A stretch of 58,942 bases of DNA from Candidatus Acidiferrales bacterium. Lineage in GTDB: Bacteria; Acidobacteriota; Terriglobia; Acidiferrales; UBA7541. Positions 1 to 19,611 of this stretch are shown in pieces. The DNA lies in contig DASYYH010000001.1 in the NCBI GenBank assembly GCA_035934015.1, positions 1 through 58,942 on the forward strand, in the 5' to 3' direction. Made by a program: the position numbers and the translations under genes. Numbering within the stretch: position 1 is the first letter of the stretch; every line of letters begins with the position of its first letter. A model generated the notes under the pieces. The model saw only the letters and a program-made list of their open reading frames with translations. It ran no database searches and was not told where the DNA came from.

Positions 1-308
1 GTACCATTGTGCTGGGCAGGACGCATTGAATCCAACCCTGTTGAAGGGTCTTCGTTGGCTTCTGAGTGATGACGCCTTGGATCCAGCTAGGATAAGACAG
101 GCTCTCGAGAGCTCCGATGCGATCTTCCGCAAGTTCGGTGCTGCCGCCGCCGCCCGGTTGCACAAACAGCAGAAAGAGCCGCTCGTTTGCGCTTCGGCGG
201 TCCCTGATCCTGACATCTCCATTTTTGCGAGTCGTTTACTGGCGGGTTAGTTTGAGATTGGTGGCGCACGCTAAGCGATACGTTCAGGGGATTTTGCGAA
301 GTGGGTGG
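1..308. other. Left edge, no supported gene
   Basis: No reading frame here resembles a protein I recognise, and the short frames present overlap each other on both strands without a convincing ribosome-binding site. The G+C is ordinary. The stretch lies next to an RHS fragment and a REP-like hairpin, so it is probably decayed accessory DNA. It contains GGTGGCGCA near 260, a partial copy of the motif that starts the hairpin at 309. Confidence 0.4.
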
Positions 309-334
309 CGCACCCTTTGATGTTTAAGGGTGCG
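309..334. repeat. REP-like hairpin
   Basis: CGCACCCTT at 309-317 and AAGGGTGCG at 326-334 form a perfect 9-bp stem around an 8-base loop. It sits directly before the RHS fragment, and a partial copy of its GGTGGCGCA lead-in occurs near 260. A compact GC-rich palindrome in non-coding DNA beside recombination-prone genes is typical of dispersed REP-type repeats. Only one full copy lies in the window, so repetition in the genome is an inference. Confidence 0.4.
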
Positions 335-344
335 GATCTTTTTG

Positions 345-527
345 ACGTACACGCAGCCAGACAATTTGAGCATCAGCGTGACCACGGCCAATCAAATCAG
401 CGGCTACACGTACGATGCAGCCGGGAATCTCGATACGATTCCGGGCACCGGCGGCATCACCTTCACGTACAATGCGGAAAACGAACTGACCACTTCGTCA
501 GCGGGCGTGAATTACACCCGAGTTTAT
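345..527 (+). pseudogene. RHS/YD-repeat protein fragment
   Basis: This frame contains GYTYDAAGNL followed about 17 residues later by FTYNAENEL, the tandem YD-repeat signature of RHS/wall-associated repeat proteins, which build large beta-barrel shells around polymorphic toxins. Only about 60 residues remain. There is no proper start, and after the sequence GVNYT the frame runs into about 35 residues with no RHS character before a stop near 638. Intact family members exceed 1,000 residues, so this is an internal scrap left by recombination. RHS genes often shuffle C-terminal modules and leave such fragments. It abuts the broken tRNA-Ser, which fits the edge of a rearranged island. Confidence 0.7.
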
Positions 528-689
528 CCTGAGCGTGTTACAGTCAAGTGCGCGAGAGGACAAAACCTTCCACTGTCACAGAACTGTCACACTAGACGGC
601 ATAAAACAGGCAAAAATCAGCGAACTTCAAAAAACTGAAAATCGCGCTATCTGACGGCTGGCAAAGGGATTTAGTCGAATTTTCCGTCA

Positions 690-720
690 GTTAGCAAAAC
701 GGCGATTTAGCGTTAGCAAA
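690..720. repeat. Direct repeat at tRNA-Ser break (possible att core)
   Basis: GTTAGCAAA is present at 690-698 and 712-720, 22 bp apart. The right copy is the anticodon loop of the truncated tRNA-Ser. A short direct repeat at the point where a tRNA gene is interrupted is what an integrase core site or a failed or secondary integration would leave. No integrase gene is visible in the window, so the assignment stays inferential. Confidence 0.4.
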
Positions 721-751
721 CCGCCGCCTTCAGCCTCTCGGCCACCTCTCC
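713..751 (-). pseudogene. 5' half of tRNA-Ser(GCU), broken at anticodon loop
   Basis: Read on the minus strand from 751 the sequence gives acceptor strand GGAGAGG, TG, D-arm GCC-GAGAGGCTGAA-GGC, G, anticodon strand GCGGT and loop TTGCTAA with anticodon GCT. The D-arm equals that of E. coli tRNA-Ser(GCU) as I remember it. The stem should then continue ACCGC, but the next bases are CGCTA, and no variable arm, T-arm or CCTCTCC acceptor strand follows down to position 1. The tRNA is therefore cut exactly at the 3' side of the anticodon loop, a favoured crossover point for tyrosine integrases. GTTAGCAAA occurs at 712-720 and again at 690-698. Confidence 0.75.
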
Positions 752-868
752 GCGGTCGGCAAATTGAATGGCCTGCAAAGTATAGCATCATCGAATGTTT
801 TCCGTCTCGGCCAGACGCGCGCACATTGGAGGATGCGCCACCGCGCTTTTTCCTCGCTGTGTGTCGAC

Positions 869-893
869 TTATGAGTCTGATGTAGACTCATAA
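869..893. promoter_or_regulatory. Perfect palindrome, likely operator
   Basis: TTATGAGTCT at 869-878 and AGACTCATAA at 884-893 are perfect 10-bp inverted arms separated by GATGT. There is no T-run, so it is not an intrinsic terminator. The AT-rich dyad looks like a binding site for a dimeric regulator. It lies about 85 bp upstream of the MutS-like gene. The half-site AGACTCATA recurs at 19669-19677 between the -35 and -10 boxes of the hsp20 promoter. The GAGT/ACTC cores recall the HspR HAIR element, but the spacing is 9 rather than 7 bases. Confidence 0.5.
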
Positions 894-975
894 CGCTTGC
901 GAAGCAGATCGTCGGACCAACATCACTCAAAAACGAGCAGACGAGGAATTGCTGTGAACGGAGAGGCTGAACCCA

Positions 976-2766
<1,791 letters not shown>

Positions 2767-2943
2767 ATTGCGGCCAGCGACCCTCGAACGGATTTTATGG
2801 CGCAAGACAATTCCTTACCCTGAGCAATCCTCGAAACGAAGCGAACTCACGGAATCCCGCTTTGATGCGAAGGCCCGCGGTGATTCAAGACTTCGCATGA
2901 TTCCCTTGCTGCTACGTAAATCTCTAGCTAGCATAGCGGCTCC

Positions 2944-3741
2944 ATGCCGCTGGCGATCGAACACATAAGGCGAATGCGCGGCGGTGCGCAATCACACCTG
3001 ATGCGGTGCGAGGACGAAAACTATTACATCGTTAAGTTTCAAAACAACCCACAAGGAACGCGGATTCTGGCGAATGAATTGCTGGGAACACGGCTGGCGG
3101 CAAGGATTGGGCTGGCGGTTGCGACGGCAGCGGTCGTCGAAGTGCGTCCGGAGATGGTGGCGCTGACCGAGGACCTAGTAGTCCAGCTGGGTCGCGGGCG
3201 CATTCCCTGCGCGGCCGGGCTGCAATTCGGCTCGCAGTATCCGGGCGAGCCGGCGAGGACGCCCGTTTACGACTTCCTGCCTGATGAGCAGTTGCGCGAG
3301 GTCGAGAATCTCGCGGATTTCGCGGGTGTGCTCGCTTTCGACAAATGGACTTGCAACACGAACGGGCGTCAGGCGATTTTTCTGCGCGCGCGGGACAGTG
3401 AGCGGTACCGCGCGGTGATGATCGACCATGGATTCTGCTTTAATGCCGGTGAATGGAATTTCCCGGATGCGCCCCTGCGCGGAATCTACGCTCGATCCAG
3501 AGTGTATGAAGGAGTGGGCGACTGGGAGGCCTTCGAGCCCTGGCTTGCGCGCATCGAGCAACGGATTACGGAAGACGTGCTGGACGAGATCGCCCGGGAG
3601 ATTCCGCCCGAGTGGTATAATTTCGACCAGGAAGCACTCTACCGCATGATGGAGCAACTTTTGCGCCGGCGAAAGCGGGTGCGGGAACTGATTCAGAGCG
3701 CGAAAAATTCCACGCACGTGCCTTTCCCCAATTGGACGTGA
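2944..3741 (+). CDS. HipA-like kinase-fold protein
   Basis: This 265-residue protein resembles the small HipA-like kinase family. YYIVKF at residues 27-32 would supply the ATP-binding lysine (K31). AFDKWTCNTNGRQ at 131-143 corresponds to the catalytic loop, and MIDHGF at 159-164 to the metal-binding Asp. In HipA the catalytic loop carries N-x-D; here it reads N-T-N, so the presumed catalytic Asp is Asn140. This suggests reduced or altered kinase activity, although the alignment is by eye. The stop is three bases from the next start, so it is co-transcribed with the DUF3037 gene. Whether the pair is a toxin-antitoxin system is unknown. The 178 bp upstream hold no visible gene. Confidence 0.75.
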   Translation: MPLAIEHIRRMRGGAQSHLMRCEDENYYIVKFQNNPQGTRILANELLGTRLAARIGLAVATAAVVEVRPEMVALTEDLVVQLGRGRIPCAAGLQFGSQYPGEPARTPVYDFLPDEQLREVENLADFAGVLAFDKWTCNTNGRQAIFLRARDSERYRAVMIDHGFCFNAGEWNFPDAPLRGIYARSRVYEGVGDWEAFEPWLARIEQRITEDVLDEIAREIPPEWYNFDQEALYRMMEQLLRRRKRVRELIQSAKNSTHVPFPNWT

Positions 3742-6063: not shown

Positions 6064-7038
6064 TCAATACGCGGCCAGCTCGCGCGCCGCGGAAAGAATA
6101 TCGTTCACGTTGGGCAAAAAGCGCTCTTCGAGCGGCGGCGAGAATGGCACCGGCGAATCCTTCGCCGTCACGCGCAGAACCGGCCCATCCAAATCCTCGA
6201 ACGCTCCTTCGCAGGCCACTGCGGCGATTTCGCCGGCAATGCCGCCAGTGCGCGTGTCTTCATGAACAATCAGCAGTTTGTTCGTCTTCTTCACCGACTG
6301 CAAAATCGTTTCTTTGTCGAGCGGCAGCAGCGTGCGCAGGTCGATGACTTCCACGTCGACTCCCTCCCTGGCGAGCGTCTCCGCCGCTTCGAGAGAGCTA
6401 TGCATCATCGCCGCATAAGTGACGATCGTCAGATCGCGGCCCTCGCGCCGGACGATGGCTTTGCCGATGGGCACCGTGTAATCGTCCTCGGGCAGCTCTT
6501 CTTTGATCCGCCGGTACAAGAATTTGTGCTCGAGAAATAGCACAGGATTGTTGTCGCGGATTGCGGACTTGAGCAAACCTTTCGCGTCGTAGGCGGTCGA
6601 GGGATAAATCACCTTCAACCCCGGCGTGTGGACGAAGTACATCTCCGGATTCGCGGAATGGAAAGGCCCGCCGTGAACGCCGCCGCCCGAGGGTCCGCGC
6701 ATCACCATCGGCACCGGAGCGCCCCAGCGGTAGTGCGATTTGGCCACAAAATTCGTAATCTGATTGAAACAGCAAGCGATGAAATCGATGAACTGCAGTT
6801 CGGCGATAGGCCGCAAGCCCTGATAGCTCATGCCCACGGCTGCGCCGATGATCGCCGTTTCGCTGATGGGCGTGTCGATGACGCGCTCCCAGCCAAAACG
6901 CTCGAGCAAACCCGCCGTCACTTTGAATGCGCCGCCGTAAACGCCGATGTCTTCTCCGATGGCCACGACTGCCGGGTCGCGTTCCATCTCTTCGAAAATC
7001 GCCTGGCGAATCGCCTCGAGCATCGTGACCGGCGCCAT
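6064..7038 (-). CDS. 2-oxoacid dehydrogenase E1 beta subunit
   Basis: This 324-residue transketolase-like beta subunit pairs with E1 alpha to decarboxylate a 2-oxoacid on thiamine diphosphate. Recognisable elements are VVAIGEDIGVYGGAF near residue 24, the cofactor-proximal ISETAIIGAAVGM, and RGPSGGGVHGGPFHS. The C-terminal domain contains IVTYAAMMHSSLEAA and LLIVHEDTRTGG. FLYRR...LPEDDYTVPIGKA resembles branched-chain 2-oxoacid dehydrogenases, but pyruvate is also possible. Its ATG overlaps the TAA of the E1 alpha gene (TAATG), so translation is coupled and equal stoichiometry is favoured. E2 follows 30 bp downstream. Confidence 0.92.
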   Translation of the reverse strand: MAPVTMLEAIRQAIFEEMERDPAVVAIGEDIGVYGGAFKVTAGLLERFGWERVIDTPISETAIIGAAVGMSYQGLRPIAELQFIDFIACCFNQITNFVAKSHYRWGAPVPMVMRGPSGGGVHGGPFHSANPEMYFVHTPGLKVIYPSTAYDAKGLLKSAIRDNNPVLFLEHKFLYRRIKEELPEDDYTVPIGKAIVRREGRDLTIVTYAAMMHSSLEAAETLAREGVDVEVIDLRTLLPLDKETILQSVKKTNKLLIVHEDTRTGGIAGEIAAVACEGAFEDLDGPVLRVTAKDSPVPFSPPLEERFLPNVNDILSAARELAAY

Positions 7039-8303
7039 TACTTTCTCCCCTCTTTGCCCTTGGGGCCTCTGCCGAAGGGAACACGCGCGGGAACCTTGGG
7101 CTTTTCTGGACGCCCATTCGACTTGCCCGCTGATTTTTGCGCTGCAGCAATCGTTCTCGAAGACTTCGCTCCGTTGCCGCCATTCGCGCCCGCTGCCGCG
7201 GATTGCTTCGTCATCGTGGACGCCAAATCAAATCCGCCGAAATCGGTGACTTCCCATTCCGGCTTCACGCTCGATTGCGGCGGCGTGACTTCTTTTTTAG
7301 ACCGCTTCCATTCGGCTTCGATCGTGTGGCAGCCGTCGCAGTAAACGCCCTGTTCGGCCAGTTCCGGGGGCGGAAAGGGGGATTTCTCGGCGACGTCGAG
7401 AGCTGCCTCCAATTCCTTCTCGATGCGCGCCGCGAATTCAGACTTCGTTTTCTCATCCCAAAGATTGTTTTGGGTAAGATATTTTTCGTAGCGCGCAATC
7501 GGATCCCGCGCTTCCCAGTATTCAAACATTTTCTTCGGCACGTACTCCGCCGGATCGTGCTGCGCGTGGCCCTTCATGCGCATGGTCTTCGACTCGATCA
7601 GCACCGGCCCTTTGCCCGCGCGGCAGCGGTCCACGGCTTCCTTCGTGGCCTGGTAAACGGCGACCACATCATTGCCGTCCACGATAGAGCTTGCGATGCC
7701 GTAGGCCTTCGCGCGGTCGGCCAGATCGTGAATCGGTACCTGTTTTGCCACGGGCGTCGAATAAGCCCACTGATTGTTTTCGACAACGAGCACAAGCGGT
7801 GCGTGCTGCGTCGCGGCGAAATTCAATCCTTCGTGGAACGCTCCTGTGGACGTCGCGCCGTCGCCGACCCACGTCATGGCCACGATGTTTTGGCCGAGAT
7901 AGCGTCCCGCGATGGCGACGCCGGTCATCACCGGAACCAGATCGCCAAGCATGGAAATCGGCGAAACGACGTGCCGCCCCTTGAGATCCCCGAAGTGGCT
8001 CGTGCCGTCCTTGCCCTTTGTCGGCGAATCGTAGCGCGCCATGTATTGCATCAGGATATCGGCCGGTTTGTAGCCCTTCACGAGCAGGCCGCCGACGTTG
8101 CGAATCATCGGCGCAATCCAGTCGCGCTTCTCAAGCGCATACGCCGTGCCCACGGAGGTTGCCTCTTGTCCCAGATTCGAATACAGCCCGCCGACAACTT
8201 TGTTTTGCCGAAACAGCCGGACGAGCTGCTCATCCAGCATGCGGTTCAACTTCATGTAGTAATAAAGTTCGAGGTGCTGATCCCTCGTGAGCGGATAGCT
8301 CAT
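7038..8303 (-). CDS. 2-oxoacid dehydrogenase E1 alpha subunit, extended C-terminus
   Basis: This 421-residue thiamine diphosphate-binding subunit carries the GDG...NN cofactor motif (GDGATSTG at 147-154, NN at 176-177) and KTMRMKGHAQHDPAEY, which corresponds to the phosphorylation-loop region. Typical bacterial E1 alpha proteins end near residue 320-360. Here GVYCDGCH at 318-325 is followed by a low-complexity Ser/Lys/Ala/Gly/Pro-rich tail of nearly 100 residues. The CxxCH could bind zinc or simply be fortuitous; no export signal accompanies it, so a haem role is unlikely. It is third in the operon, between lipB and E1 beta, and its stop overlaps the E1 beta start. Confidence 0.92.
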   Translation of the reverse strand: MSYPLTRDQHLELYYYMKLNRMLDEQLVRLFRQNKVVGGLYSNLGQEATSVGTAYALEKRDWIAPMIRNVGGLLVKGYKPADILMQYMARYDSPTKGKDGTSHFGDLKGRHVVSPISMLGDLVPVMTGVAIAGRYLGQNIVAMTWVGDGATSTGAFHEGLNFAATQHAPLVLVVENNQWAYSTPVAKQVPIHDLADRAKAYGIASSIVDGNDVVAVYQATKEAVDRCRAGKGPVLIESKTMRMKGHAQHDPAEYVPKKMFEYWEARDPIARYEKYLTQNNLWDEKTKSEFAARIEKELEAALDVAEKSPFPPPELAEQGVYCDGCHTIEAEWKRSKKEVTPPQSSVKPEWEVTDFGGFDLASTMTKQSAAAGANGGNGAKSSRTIAAAQKSAGKSNGRPEKPKVPARVPFGRGPKGKEGRK

Positions 8304-8398
8304 ATTCTGCTCCCTGCGCGACTTCCCATTATCCTACTCCGGCTCGTTCCGCGATACCGCCGAGTTCTCATTTTTGGGCTCGTGGCACTGCTTCTTTT

Positions 8399-9175
8399 TC
8401 AGGTGCCCACGTGCGCCACGGGCGTTTCGTGTTCCCGCAAAACCTCTTCCAATGTTTCGCGCGCTACCAATTGCATCTTGCGTCCGAAAATCTCTCCTAG
8501 ATGGAAAACAATTCGCGGCGCAACTTCCTCGCGGCTGACTGCTCGCCCCAGCAATCGCTCGAGCGACGTCGCTCGCTTATCGGGAATGCCGCACGGAACG
8601 ATCAAATCGAAGTAGCGCAAATCCGTCGAGACATTGTAAGCGAATCCGTGCGAAGTAACCCATCGGCTCAAATGCACGCCAATGGCTGCGAGCTTTTCTG
8701 ACGCATTACCATTCATGCCGCCGGAAAGAACATCGACCCAAACGCCCGTCAAGCCCGCTTTACGACCTGTCTCAATTCCGAATTCCGCCGTCGCGCGGAT
8801 CATCGCCTCTTCCAACTGGCGCACATACCATGCAACGTCACGCCGGATCGCGGCGAGATTCAGGATTGGATAGCCAACGATCTGTCCCGGCCCGTGATAG
8901 GTGATGTCGCCCCCGCGATCGGTAGCGTGAAATTCGACGCCCATCTGCCGCAACAAATGTGACGATGCCAGCAGATTTTCCTGATGCCCGTTGCGCCCGA
9001 GCGTGATGACGTGCGGATGCTCGCACAAAAGTAAAACGTCCGGCACAGCATCGGCTCTGCGCGCGGCAACGAGCTTCCGCTGCAAATCGAAGGCGGGACC
9101 GTATTGCATCAGTCCCAAATCGACAACCCAGCACGTTTTGTCGTGCGCCGTCACTTCTCTTTCATCCTTTGGCAA
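8399..9175 (-). CDS. lipB: Octanoyl-[ACP]:protein N-octanoyltransferase
   Basis: This 258-residue LipB transfers octanoate from acyl carrier protein to the lipoyl-domain lysine of E2-type proteins, the first step of lipoate assembly. The family signature DRGGDITYHGPGQIVGYPI lies at residues 86-104. The active-site Cys is in IVPCGIPDK (C195), and the conserved Lys is in EKLAAIGVHLSRWVTSHG (K161). The length is slightly above the usual 210-250. It lies between lpdA and the E1 genes, so the modifying enzyme is co-expressed with the complex it modifies. The lipoyl synthase LipA gene is not in the window. Confidence 0.95.
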   Translation of the reverse strand: MPKDEREVTAHDKTCWVVDLGLMQYGPAFDLQRKLVAARRADAVPDVLLLCEHPHVITLGRNGHQENLLASSHLLRQMGVEFHATDRGGDITYHGPGQIVGYPILNLAAIRRDVAWYVRQLEEAMIRATAEFGIETGRKAGLTGVWVDVLSGGMNGNASEKLAAIGVHLSRWVTSHGFAYNVSTDLRYFDLIVPCGIPDKRATSLERLLGRAVSREEVAPRIVFHLGEIFGRKMQLVARETLEEVLREHETPVAHVGT

Positions 9176-9208
9176 CCCGCTCCCGCACGTTGCGACACTG
9201 CAAGCATC

Positions 9209-10606
9209 CTAAGCGTTGATCGTCAAGCCCATCACGGAATTGAACGCGTCGCCCATCGCTTCCCAAACGGTCGGATGCGCGTGGATCATCGCCATCATGT
9301 CGTCAATCGTGCCTTCGAGCTGCAATGCGGTTGTCGCCTCAGCGATGATTTCCGTCGAGAGCGAACCAATCGAATGCACGCCCAGGACCTCATTGTACTT
9401 CTCGTCCGCCACGACTTTGATGAATCCTTCATGACGTCCCAAAATCGATGACTTGCTGTTCCCCACGAATGGGAATTTCCCTGTTTTCACTTTGTGGCCG
9501 GCATCGCGCGCCTGCTTTTCGGTTAATCCAATCGACCCGATTTGTGGATCACAGAAGGTACAATTCGGACAGCGCAGGCGGTCGAAAGGCTGCACCGGTT
9601 TTCCGGCCATACGCCCAACGGCAATAATTCCCTCCATCGAAGCGGCGTGCGCCAGTTGCGGCAGGCCGGCGACGATGTCGCCGATCGCGTACAGATGCGG
9701 CTCGGCGGTTTCCATGTAGCCATTGGTGTGAACAAATCCGCGTTCGACCTTCGCGGCAGTTTTCTCCAAGCCAACATTTTCTGTGACCGGCCTGCGCCCG
9801 ACCGCAATTAACACTTTTTCGGCGGAAATGTTCTGAAGTTTGCCGGCCTTGTCCTTGAATGCGACGCTCATGCCTTTCGCATCCTTCTTCACCGATTCAA
9901 CGCCGGCTTCCAGTTCAAATCGAATGCCGCGCTTGCGAAACGCTTTGCCCAGCTCCGCGGAAATTTCTTCATCCTCGAGCGGCACCATGCGTGGCAGCTT
10001 TTCGAGAATCGTGACGTCCGTGCCAAATGTTTTGTAAATCGAAGCGAACTCCACGCCCACTGCGCCAGCGCCCACAATGACAAGCGACTTGGGAATCGAA
10101 GGCATATCGAGCATGCCGCGATTGTCCAGAATGTCCTGGTTGTTGATGGTGATGCCAGGCAGCGAGCGCGAATCGGAGCCCGAGGCGAGCATAATGTTGG
10201 CAGCTTCAATTTCCGTTTTCTTGCCGTCCTTCTCCACGGAAACGCGCCCCCGTCCGACAATTTGGCCCCAGCCTTGCATCGACTCCACTTTGTTTTTCTT
10301 GAAGAGAAACTCGATGCCCTTGGCGTGTTTATTGACGATCTTCGTCTTGCGCGCGATCATCGCCGGCCAATTCACTTTCACTTCTTTGACTTCGAAGCCA
10401 AATTCCGACGCGCGCTGGAAATCCTCGTACAATTCAGCATGGTGAAGCAAAACCTTGGTCGGAATGCAGCCGATGTGCAGGCAGGTGCCACCGAGAAACG
10501 GATCTTTCTCGATGACGACGGTCTTCAGGCCCCATTGTCCCGCGCGAATTGCCGCGACGTATCCTCCGGGGCCGCTTCCTATGATGGCAAGATCGTATTT
10601 GGCCAA
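9209..10606 (-). CDS. lpdA: Dihydrolipoyl dehydrogenase (E3)
   Basis: This 465-residue FAD disulfide oxidoreductase regenerates oxidised lipoamide on E2 with NAD+. It shows the N-terminal dinucleotide motif IGSGPGGYVAAI (9-20), the redox disulfide GGTCLHIGCIPTK (C42, C47), and a second Rossmann motif VIVGAGAVGVEFA for NAD. The C-terminal HAHPTVWE provides the catalytic His-Glu pair (H444, E449). The central RCPNCTFCDPQ carries one more CxxC than usual, which may just be variation. It is the promoter-proximal gene of the lpdA-lipB-E1-E1-E2 cluster. The 257 bp upstream, shared with the divergent CPBP gene, should contain its promoter. Confidence 0.96.
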   Translation of the reverse strand: MAKYDLAIIGSGPGGYVAAIRAGQWGLKTVVIEKDPFLGGTCLHIGCIPTKVLLHHAELYEDFQRASEFGFEVKEVKVNWPAMIARKTKIVNKHAKGIEFLFKKNKVESMQGWGQIVGRGRVSVEKDGKKTEIEAANIMLASGSDSRSLPGITINNQDILDNRGMLDMPSIPKSLVIVGAGAVGVEFASIYKTFGTDVTILEKLPRMVPLEDEEISAELGKAFRKRGIRFELEAGVESVKKDAKGMSVAFKDKAGKLQNISAEKVLIAVGRRPVTENVGLEKTAAKVERGFVHTNGYMETAEPHLYAIGDIVAGLPQLAHAASMEGIIAVGRMAGKPVQPFDRLRCPNCTFCDPQIGSIGLTEKQARDAGHKVKTGKFPFVGNSKSSILGRHEGFIKVVADEKYNEVLGVHSIGSLSTEIIAEATTALQLEGTIDDMMAMIHAHPTVWEAMGDAFNSVMGLTINA

Positions 10607-18447: not shown

Positions 18448-19611
18448 ATGGCCAAAGGCCTGGTAACGATTAGCCAGCGCGGCGCTGACCGCATTCGTAC
18501 TGGTCATCTATGGGTCTATCGCAGCGATGTGCGCTCCGCCGAAGCCGAAAGCGGCGACATCGTTCCGGTCAAGGACGAGCGTGGCAACTTCGTCGGCCAT
18601 GCCTTTTATAGCACGCGCTCGCAGATCGCCGTTCGCCTCCTCACGCGCGACGATGTCGCCGTTGATCGCGCATTTTTCGTCGCCCGCATCCAGGCCGCCG
18701 CTGAATTTCGCAAGCTTGTCGTCGAAAATACAGAAGCCTGCCGCCTCATCTACAGTGAAGCAGACTTGCTCCCATCGCTGATTGTCGACCGCTACGCCGA
18801 TTTCTTCGTCATCCAGACCCTGAGTCAGGGAACAGAGCGCCGCAAAGAGGAGTTCGTCTCGATTCTCACGGAACTTTTCTCGCCTCACGGCATCCTGGAG
18901 CGAAATGATCCGCGCGTCCGCGAACTCGAAGGCCTCGACCGCCGCGTTTCGCTCCTCTCCGGAGAGGTTCCGGAGGAAGTCGTCGCATCGCGAAATGGCG
19001 TTCGCTTTGTCCACGATCTGTACAAAGGGCAAAAGACAGGCGCATTTCTCGACCAGCGTGAAAACCACGCCGTCGCGGCCACCTACGCATCTGGCGAAGT
19101 CCTTGATTGCTTCACCTATCATGGCGGTTTCGCTTTAACCATCGCTTCCCGCGCTGCACATGTCGAGGGCGTCGATCTTTCCAATGCTGCCATCGCCATC
19201 GCTCGCCGCAATCAGGAGCTCAATCAAATCTCCAATGTGACCTTCCGAGAGGCCAATTCCTTTGACGTCCTCAAGGCCTATGACGAGTCCGGCCGCAAAT
19301 TCGATATGGTTATCCTCGATCCTCCTGCCTTCGCCAAAAACCGCGACAGCGTCCCATCCGCTATCCGTGGCTATAAGGAAATCAACCTTCGCGCCATTAA
19401 GCTCCTCAAACCTGGTGGAATTCTCGTTACATGCTCTTGCTCTTACCATATTCAGGAACCGCTGTTTCTTCAGATCGTGGCGGAAGCCGCCAACGACGCT
19501 CGTAAACTGCTTCAAATCGTCGAACGCCGCACGCAAGCTCGCGACCACACGATCCTTCTGACCATGCCTGAAACTCATTACCTTAAGTGTCTGATTTTCA
19601 GAGTATTATAG
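18448..19611 (+). CDS. Class I SAM-dependent rRNA methyltransferase, RlmI-like
   Basis: About 387 residues with an N-terminal PUA domain (LVTISQRGADRIRTGHLWVY), a central RNA-binding linker and a C-terminal Rossmann methyltransferase. The SAM loop is EVLDCFTYHGGFAL, and VILDPPAFAKN is the catalytic motif IV. CSCSYHIQEP carries the nucleophilic-type cysteines of m5C enzymes. The closest characterised relative is RlmI, which methylates C1962 of 23S rRNA, so that activity is likely but not proven. A start at 18430 is also possible; 18448 follows a GAGG element and matches the PUA start. The short spacer to hsp20 contains a promoter, so the two are separately expressed. Confidence 0.9.
   Translation: MAKGLVTISQRGADRIRTGHLWVYRSDVRSAEAESGDIVPVKDERGNFVGHAFYSTRSQIAVRLLTRDDVAVDRAFFVARIQAAAEFRKLVVENTEACRLIYSEADLLPSLIVDRYADFFVIQTLSQGTERRKEEFVSILTELFSPHGILERNDPRVRELEGLDRRVSLLSGEVPEEVVASRNGVRFVHDLYKGQKTGAFLDQRENHAVAATYASGEVLDCFTYHGGFALTIASRAAHVEGVDLSNAAIAIARRNQELNQISNVTFREANSFDVLKAYDESGRKFDMVILDPPAFAKNRDSVPSAIRGYKEINLRAIKLLKPGGILVTCSCSYHIQEPLFLQIVAEAANDARKLLQIVERRTQARDHTILLTMPETHYLKCLIFRVL

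What the first reader, a model, noticed from the sequence alone, without database searches (positions are those of the whole stretch)
690..751. tRNA-Ser(GCU) cut exactly at the anticodon loop
The 5' half of a normal tRNA-Ser, including acceptor strand and D-arm, ends at TTGCTAA. The expected ACCGC and everything after it are missing, and GTTAGCAAA is repeated 22 bp further on. Anticodon loops are crossover sites for tyrosine integrases. Normal integration rebuilds the tRNA, so a half gene suggests imprecise excision, a deletion across the island, or a second copy that was sacrificed.
Basis: partly seen in the sequence, partly recalled or inferred. Interest (0 to 1): 0.6.

Follow-up and report, generated by a model that had tools for sequence, protein, structure and literature searches.

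The report
Leftover tRNA half beside mobile element
The half tRNA gene is most likely the host's original front half, pushed aside when a mobile element inserted at the anticodon loop and rebuilt the gene elsewhere with its own copy of that half; this is an uncommon but known style of insertion, here seen in a family of elements in acidobacteria.

Summary
In detail: bases 713-751 (minus strand) are the 5' half of tRNA-Ser(GCU), ending at the 3' edge of the anticodon loop. It is not imprecise excision or a sacrificed copy. The only intact tRNA-Ser(GCU) is on contig C24, and a tyrosine integrase gene ends 4 nt before it. The two 5' halves share an identical 40-bp run. Same-genus G001 has window-type genes on one side and C24-type genes on the other side of one intact tRNA-Ser(GCU). 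So an element carrying an integrase and a spare 5' half integrated across the anticodon loop, rebuilt the tRNA at its integrase end, and left the host's half and promoter at its other end. The layout recurs: 14 of 17 distinct integrase loci abut a tRNA-Ser; 20 of 30 loci with the conserved element end carry a tRNA-Ser half; one contig spans a 25.4-kb element. Displaced 5' tRNA fragments are known but uncommon (159 of 3919 islands). The window's own element is not assembled through, and excision, transfer and promoter use are untested.

The parts
713..751 (-). displaced host 5' half of tRNA-Ser(GCU), ending at the 3' edge of the anticodon loop (one attachment-site copy)
   Evidence: identical over tRNA positions 1-39 to the intact gene G000:C24:19207-19296; homology to relatives G003 and G001 ends at exactly 713
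779..784 (-). likely -10 box (TATACT) of the host's original tRNA-Ser promoter, now stranded with the half gene
   Evidence: TATACT also precedes the intact tRNA-Ser(GCU) in both same-genus relatives G003 and G001; the strict promoter scan found nothing here and my scoring of G001 preferred another hexamer; inferred
752..975 (.). host flank between the tRNA and the divergent MutS-domain gene
   Evidence: matches G003:C52 throughout (window 713-2790); in G001:C40 only 713-792 matches here, and the match resumes at 1141 inside the MutS-domain gene
976..2766 (+). host MutS-domain gene, neighbour of the original tRNA-Ser(GCU) site
   Evidence: Pfam MutS_V; next to tRNA-Ser(GCU) in G003 and G001
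686..696 (-). 5' arm of the conserved inverted repeat of the element end
   Evidence: 11 pairs, 86.6% of 231 cells paired over 21 element ends, 7 of 11 pairs with two-sided changes
645..655 (-). 3' arm of the same inverted repeat
657..674 (-). highly conserved 18-mer in the loop of the inverted repeat, a tag of this element family
   Evidence: 28 of 399 genomes of the class hold it with at most 1 mismatch, reversed-string control 0; 24 of 30 loci read are element ends by arm repeats or tRNA half
572..591 (-). pair of direct arm-type repeats (TGTGACAGT, 11 bp apart), probable integrase arm-binding sites
   Evidence: same motif inside the integrase 3' end at the other end of the element; the exact spaced pair had three distinct hits in the window, C24 and seven other loci scanned, each at an element end
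534..542 (-). third arm-type site (TGTAACACG)
   Evidence: a related site, inverted relative to the pair in G043 and G045, at the same spacing in G043, G045 and G041
1..712 (.). end of the integrated element, as far as the contig reaches; beyond the arm sites it holds an RHS-repeat fragment
   Evidence: element-end alignment of four genomes; RHS_repeat; bases 353-537 are 95% identical to C11:370032-370215; how far left the element reaches is not known

Best explanation
The half gene is the displaced 5' fragment of tRNA-Ser(GCU) left by site-specific integration of a mobile element. The element carried a tyrosine integrase gene followed, 4 nt after its stop codon, by its own copy of the tRNA 5' half. 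Strand exchange across the 7-bp anticodon loop joined the element's 5' half to the host's 3' half. That remade the single tRNA-Ser(GCU) gene directly behind the integrase (contig C24), while the host's 5' half and promoter stayed at the far end of the element (this window). The rebuilt tRNA must then be transcribed from element DNA: either a promoter inside the integrase 3' end or read-through from the integrase gene. Shown: both junctions, the 40-bp duplication, the uninterrupted site in relatives, recurrence across genomes, and matching arm repeats at both ends. Inferred: that C24 and C1 are the two ends of one element, that the integrase did it, that the element can still move, and which promoter drives the tRNA.
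For: (1) The only intact tRNA-Ser(GCU) among 46 typed tRNAs is C24:19207-19296; a tyrosine integrase (PF00589, 1.9e-35) ends 4 nt before it on the same strand. No orphan 3' half exists in the assembly. (2) attL and attR share exactly tRNA positions 0-39; in three other paired elements the run is -1..39, 0..39 and 1..40. (3) Uninterrupted site: G001:C40 matches window genes on one side of its tRNA-Ser(GCU) and, on the other side, C24 in blocks (19200-19297, then 8147-9331, 6859-8054, 1964-3210) in the same order; G003's match to the window stops at 713. (4) 14 of 17 distinct integrase loci lie directly upstream of a tRNA-Ser on the same strand. (5) 20 of 30 loci found by the 18-mer of the element end carry a tRNA-Ser 5' half at the same place. 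(6) G045 (=G171) holds half and intact gene in direct orientation on one contig, 25.4 kb apart, integrase at the intact end. (7) Arm-type repeats at fixed offsets in both ends, matching within an element: G045's differ from the others in the same way at both its ends.
Against: The middle of the window's own element is not assembled: C24 and C1 both end inside it, so their linkage is inferred from G001. On the C24 side of G001 about 9.9 kb of C24 (9332-19199) has no match of any length in the stretch compared, and directly beyond the tRNA only 7 bp (G001) or 15 bp (G003) match, so the 3' flank is supported by blocks further out. The integrase frame runs off C24, so its N-terminus is unseen. No reads, circular form or excision product could be examined. 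3 of 17 integrase loci have no tRNA-Ser behind them: a distant Moraxella relative, the first of a tandem pair in G302, and a broken one about 20 bp from a contig end, where it cannot be tested. A displaced half with this element end was found by pattern in 3 of 9 genomes of integrase loci, and the 18-mer in 4 of the 9 genomes that had the integrase in the class search. 10 of 30 loci with the 18-mer lack a recognisable half: 4 have arm repeats, 6 look like chance.
Confidence: 0.94

Rival explanations
1. Imprecise excision or a deletion across an island destroyed one of two tRNA copies.
For: Only half a gene is visible in the window.
Against: The element end next to the half is intact and conserved in other genomes, with arm repeats and inverted repeat. 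The missing 3' half is accounted for in the rebuilt gene on C24, and no orphan 3' half exists in the assembly. Whether relatives have a second tRNA-Ser(GCU) was not searched.
Confidence: 0.02
2. Misassembly or chimeric join at about 712.
For: The genome is a draft of 28 contigs, and the window's left end holds RHS-like sequence repeated elsewhere in it.
Against: The same junction (tRNA-Ser half, short spacer, inverted repeat) occurs in other genomes: 20 of 30 loci read, the window included.
Confidence: 0.01
3. The element does not rebuild the tRNA and instead carries a separate complementing tRNA, as in tRNA-dependent lysogeny of mycobacteriophages.
For: A half gene without its 3' part is what that mechanism leaves (abstract and passages of PMC10865867).
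Against: Here the shared core is 40 bp, not about 10. The intact gene has the integrase directly on its 5' side and, on its 3' side, C24 genes that follow the same tRNA in G001, though the first 9.9 kb has no match there.
Confidence: 0.02
4. The half gene is itself functional, for example a trans-spliced or regulatory tRNA half made from the stranded host promoter.
For: A TATACT box shared with relatives still stands 27 nt upstream of the half.
Against: No separate 3' half exists in the assembly; a complete gene exists; some halves in relatives look decayed (L141, L150).
Confidence: 0.01

Closest known systems
Genomic islands with a displaced 5' tDNA fragment (Islander database, PMC4383910)
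   Same: Tyrosine integrase, regenerated tDNA at one end, displaced fragment in direct orientation at the other; 159 of 3919 islands have a 5' fragment and 2083 an anticodon-centred site (passages read).
   Different: A specific family, seen here only at tRNA-Ser genes, with the integrase stop codon 4 nt before the tRNA in 7 of 14 loci and shared arm repeats and inverted repeat.
pTN3-type integrative plasmids of Thermococcales (PMC5495485, PMC8371274)
   Same: Attachment site is the 5' half of a tRNA gene (41-bp identity); the rebuilt tRNA is separated from its original promoter, and the review says it is expressed from the integrase promoter (passages and one section read).
   Different: pTN3 integration disrupts its integrase gene; here the integrase frame stays unbroken up to the rebuilt tRNA. 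Archaeal versus bacterial integrase; tRNA-Leu versus tRNA-Ser.
tRNA-dependent lysogeny phages (PMC10865867)
   Same: A tyrosine integrase breaks a host tRNA gene and the host then depends on element DNA for that tRNA (abstract and passages read).
   Different: Those phages do not rebuild the tRNA and carry a separate one; here it is rebuilt.

Membership tests
tyrosine-integrase island in a tRNA gene | integrase gene at one end, next to the regenerated tRNA | tested here: met
   C24, 4 nt from stop codon to tRNA; Pfam Phage_integrase
tyrosine-integrase island in a tRNA gene | displaced tRNA fragment in direct orientation at the other end | tested here: met
   window 713-751, same sense once the contigs are placed by G001, linkage inferred; on one contig in G045
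tyrosine-integrase island in a tRNA gene | uninterrupted site in relatives | tested here: met
   G001:C40 on both sides (C24 side in blocks) and G003:C52 on the window side; in G002 and G004 the contig ends too close to the MutS-domain gene to tell
tyrosine-integrase island in a tRNA gene | excision to a circle and reintegration | not testable with these tools
   no reads or culture
common 3'-fragment subtype | element restores the 3' end; host promoter kept | tested here: not met
   the duplicated part is the 5' half; the host upstream region stays with the displaced half
5'-fragment subtype | element restores the 5' half; displaced 5' fragment upstream of the tRNA | tested here: met
tRNA-dependent lysogeny | tRNA not rebuilt; core of about 10 bp | tested here: not met
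   40-bp identical core and rebuilt gene
pTN3-type | integrase gene split by integration | tested here: not met
   the integrase frame is unbroken up to the tRNA in C24 (from the contig end) and in L050-L053, and overlaps it by 14 nt in L054

The most novel reading that the evidence does not exclude
In this element family the last 100 or so bases of the integrase gene are a composite switch: coding tail, integrase arm-binding sites and the only promoter of a tRNA-Ser that the cell cannot spare. Integrase bound at the arms could then govern the tRNA as well as recombination, and the cell could not lose the element except by precise excision. Remnant loci where only the integrase tail and the tRNA were detected (4 of 14) would be domesticated tRNA promoters. 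The covarying inverted repeat with its highly conserved loop at the other end would be a further, undescribed control site.
Probability: 0.3. Interest if true: 0.6.

Novelty: new member of a known kind. Interest (0 to 1): 0.42.

Why it matters
It turns a puzzling half tRNA into a clean example of the uncommon 5'-replacing mode of tRNA integration, in a phylum where my paper searches listed no description of it. The host's only assembled tRNA-Ser(GCU) has been handed to element DNA, which should make the element hard to lose. The 18-mer of the element end gives a simple tag for finding related elements in draft genomes; the one complete relative carries a DarTG pair and other defence-like genes.

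Tried and rejected
Rfam at gathering threshold gave only the tRNA-Trp at the other end of the window. Viral contigs: two distant integrase hits (34% and 27% identity) and no exact copy of the 18-mer, so no sign of a known phage. Plasmid and phage collections: 921 and 78 records with integrases, none at 60% identity or more (best listed 35.8% and 36.1%). Solved structures: XerA-type and other tyrosine recombinases, apart from one chain with an unrelated title. The integrase N-terminus is not found elsewhere in the genome, so the middle of the element could not be recovered; five weaker integrases there (27-36%) were not counted in the family, nor were the two viral hits, a 28.7% match in G003, nor short pieces in L096, L131 and L163. 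The MutS-domain gene gave 12 loci outside this genome; only those of G003:C52 and G001 show the tRNA-Ser; in G002 and G004:C169 the contig ends 2 and 217 bp beyond the matched stretch, and the others (more distant genomes and second copies) show none. Promoters: the sigma-70 scan found none on the host side (window 500-1000) and two overlapping 9-of-12 matches upstream of the rebuilt tRNA against 0.3 expected. My own scoring over 14 loci gave a mean of 7.9 against 5.5 for integrase-body pieces, but several loci do not exceed their control maxima; this is support, not proof. The displaced half of the second element, at tRNA-Ser(UGA) on C23, was not found in this genome. The search table counts a stop (TAA) inside the C23 integrase; on reading, its stop merely lies 28 nt before the tRNA. 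Paper searches were judged by titles and abstract openings; passages of PMC9897764, on tRNA gene fragments left by integration, were also seen. Williams 2002 is not held; I rely on how PMC8371274 cites it. PMC7192596 is not held.

Full report
What is there. On the minus strand, window bases 751 to 713 are the first 39 nt of a tRNA-Ser(GCU); the sequence then departs at exactly the 3' edge of the anticodon loop. The window is the whole of contig C1 of a draft genome of 3.37 Mb in 28 contigs, rated 98.6% complete. ARAGORN and Rfam see only a tRNA-Trp in the window. The half is not chance: the genome holds one other copy of its sequence, identical over 40 bp.

Where the rest is. All 46 tRNA genes found by the Rfam model were typed. 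The serine genes are GCU on C24, UGA on C23, and GGA and CGA on C26. The only intact tRNA-Ser(GCU) is C24:19207-19296, and a 31-base 3'-half pattern with up to 3 mismatches occurs nowhere else. Four nucleotides before its first base ends an integrase gene on the same strand (Pfam Phage_integrase, 1.9e-35), which runs off the end of C24. The 40 shared bases are tRNA positions 0-39; upstream of them C24 has integrase DNA and the window has host DNA; downstream C24 has the true 3' half and the window has element DNA.

Uninterrupted site. The MutS-domain gene beside the half was searched in 41 genomes and found in 10, this one included. In same-genus G003 and G001 a complete tRNA-Ser(GCU) stands in that place; in same-genus G002 and G004 the contig ends 2 and 217 bp beyond the matched stretch, so they cannot tell. 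G001:C40 matches the window on one side of its tRNA and C24 on the other, the latter in blocks: the tRNA with 7 bp beyond it, then nothing for 9.9 kb of C24, then blocks between 9331 and 1964 in the same order. In G003 the match to the window stops at exactly 713, and the match to C24 covers the tRNA and 15 bp beyond; G003 has a 28.7% integrase-like match further downstream. So C1 and C24 were most likely neighbours, and the element lies between them.

Recurrence. The integrase was searched in genome contigs (10 loci), in 299 genomes of the class (9 with a match at 1e-60) and in 89 of the family (7). By matching coordinates several handles are the same genomes: G041/G187, G042/G209, G043/G275, G044/G013 and G045/G171. 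That leaves 17 distinct loci; weaker matches were not counted (see Tried and rejected). Of the 17, 14 have a tRNA-Ser directly downstream on the same strand: 2 GCU, 11 UGA, 1 CGA. The other three are a distant Moraxella integrase (34% identity), the first of two integrases in tandem in G302, and a broken copy in G314 whose stretch ends about 20 bp on. In 7 of the 14 the stop codon leaves 4 nt before the tRNA; in the rest the gap is 3 to 44 nt, or an overlap of 14 nt in L054. In 4 of the 14 (L056-L059) only the C-terminal 48 to 110 or so residues of integrase were detected, abutting the tRNA.

The other end. Nine genomes of integrase loci were searched for 5' halves; displaced halves with this element end were read in 3 (G043, G045, G041), and G043 has a further half with a different end. 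Aligned with the window the three share the element end: an inverted repeat (imperfect in G041), an 18-mer in its loop, then arm-type repeats. The 18-mer with at most one mismatch occurs in 28 of 399 genomes of the class; the reversed-string control gave none. It is present in 4 of the 9 genomes that had the integrase and absent from the other 5. 31 places were listed and 30 became loci, all read: 20 have a tRNA-Ser 5' half just upstream (the window among them; L140 and L145 of these show no exact arm repeat). Of the 10 without, 4 (L132, L150, L153, L159) have arm repeats, and L150 shows a decayed half; 6 have neither and look like chance. The inverted repeat was counted on 21 of the 24 element ends, leaving out L150, L153 and L159: 86.6% of 231 cells pair, 7 of 11 pairs show two-sided changes (8 of 500 shuffles reach that; none reaches the percentage paired), and the best slid version pairs 50.6%.

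Arms. Inside the integrase 3' end TGTGACA-type repeats sit about 100, 89 and 50 nt before the tRNA. By the motif expressions used, 8 of the 14 loci have all three, 5 have two and L093 has one. The same pair and a third site stand about 160, 171 and 209 nt into the other end (the first copy in G043 and G041 is a variant seen in the alignment). In G045 both ends carry a changed version (GGTCACA), which ties the two ends together. The exact spaced pair was scanned in the window, C24 and seven other loci: three distinct hits (window, C24, C23), each at an element end.

One whole element. In G045 (=G171) the half (C46:49747) and the intact gene (75171) lie on one contig in direct orientation, 25.4 kb apart, with the integrase at the intact end. 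19 of the 20 reading frames picked in this stretch were scanned. Pfam and PADLOC name a RepB-type primase, a type II/IV secretion ATPase, DarT and DarG, an ArdC-type protein, helicase-nuclease proteins like those of defence systems, two glycosyltransferases and a Mutator transposase. It looks like an integrative island or mobilisable element with defence cargo; no conjugation set was seen among these 19. The window's own element is not assembled through: C23 and C24 both stop at the same codon of two similar integrase genes, and their first 141 bases are identical, which suggests that the assembler broke at a repeat.

How it works, most likely. The element's attachment site is the tRNA 5' half with its 7-nt anticodon loop. 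The integrase, probably bound at the arm repeats, exchanges strands across the loop, so the element's half joins the host's 3' half. The host keeps a complete tRNA but loses its own promoter from it. Upstream of the rebuilt gene there is a promoter-like match (TACAAT with a -35-like hexamer overlapping an arm repeat); across 14 loci the best scores exceed integrase-body controls on average (7.9 against 5.5). That this drives the tRNA is inferred. That the tRNA cannot be spared is general knowledge, not a result of these calls.

Known or new. Islander counts 159 islands with a 5' tDNA fragment among 3919 (passages of PMC4383910). The archaeal pTN3 family uses the tRNA 5' half, with the tRNA then expressed from the integrase promoter, and the reviewing authors call this seldom met in bacteria, citing Williams 2002 (PMC8371274, one section read; PMC5495485, passages). 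The mode is therefore known. My searches listed no paper describing this acidobacterial family, but listings were judged by titles and abstract openings and most subscription papers are not held. I file it as a new family of a known kind. That the host is an acidobacterium follows from the named records whose genomes belong to the window's family (with the handle matches above).

Noticed in passing
G000:C23:336367-337430: A second integrase of the same family (86% identical) abuts tRNA-Ser(UGA) in the same genome; its displaced half was not found in the assembly.
   Followed up: partly
window 645-696 and 20 related element ends: Covarying 11-bp inverted repeat with a highly conserved 18-mer in its loop, less than 20 nt from the crossover site; function unknown (directionality-factor site, hairpin, or other).
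   Followed up: partly
L161 (G003:C304) 7983-8225: 243 bp of the host's MutS-tRNA spacer plus the tRNA half, 98.8% identical to G003:C52, sit before an element end although C52 still has the intact gene; mixed strains in the assembly or a captured host segment.
   Followed up: partly
L131 (G288:C152) 1170-1367: A decayed integrase tail lies just before a displaced half, as if one element had inserted into the tRNA rebuilt by an earlier one.
   Followed up: no
L082/L081 (G043:C5:37031 and 19150): Another displaced tRNA-Ser(UGA) half with a different element end; the next tRNA-Ser downstream has a different 5' half, so either they are unrelated or the element replaced it with a foreign half.
   Followed up: partly
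window 330-638: RHS-repeat fragment in the element end; bases 353-537 are 95% identical to a stretch on C11.
   Followed up: no
C24:9332-19199: About 9.9 kb of C24 between the rebuilt tRNA and the next G001-like genes (efflux-type and rhodanese genes among them) has no match in the G001 stretch; perhaps a further insertion on the 3' side or a loss in G001.
   Followed up: no
L032 1447-1539 (C24 tRNA): The variable arm of the rebuilt tRNA-Ser(GCU) has one base that differs from G003 and seems to leave a G-A mismatch (read by eye).
   Followed up: no
L077 6174-7930: DarT and DarG toxin-antitoxin pair in the complete 25.4-kb element of G045.
   Followed up: partly
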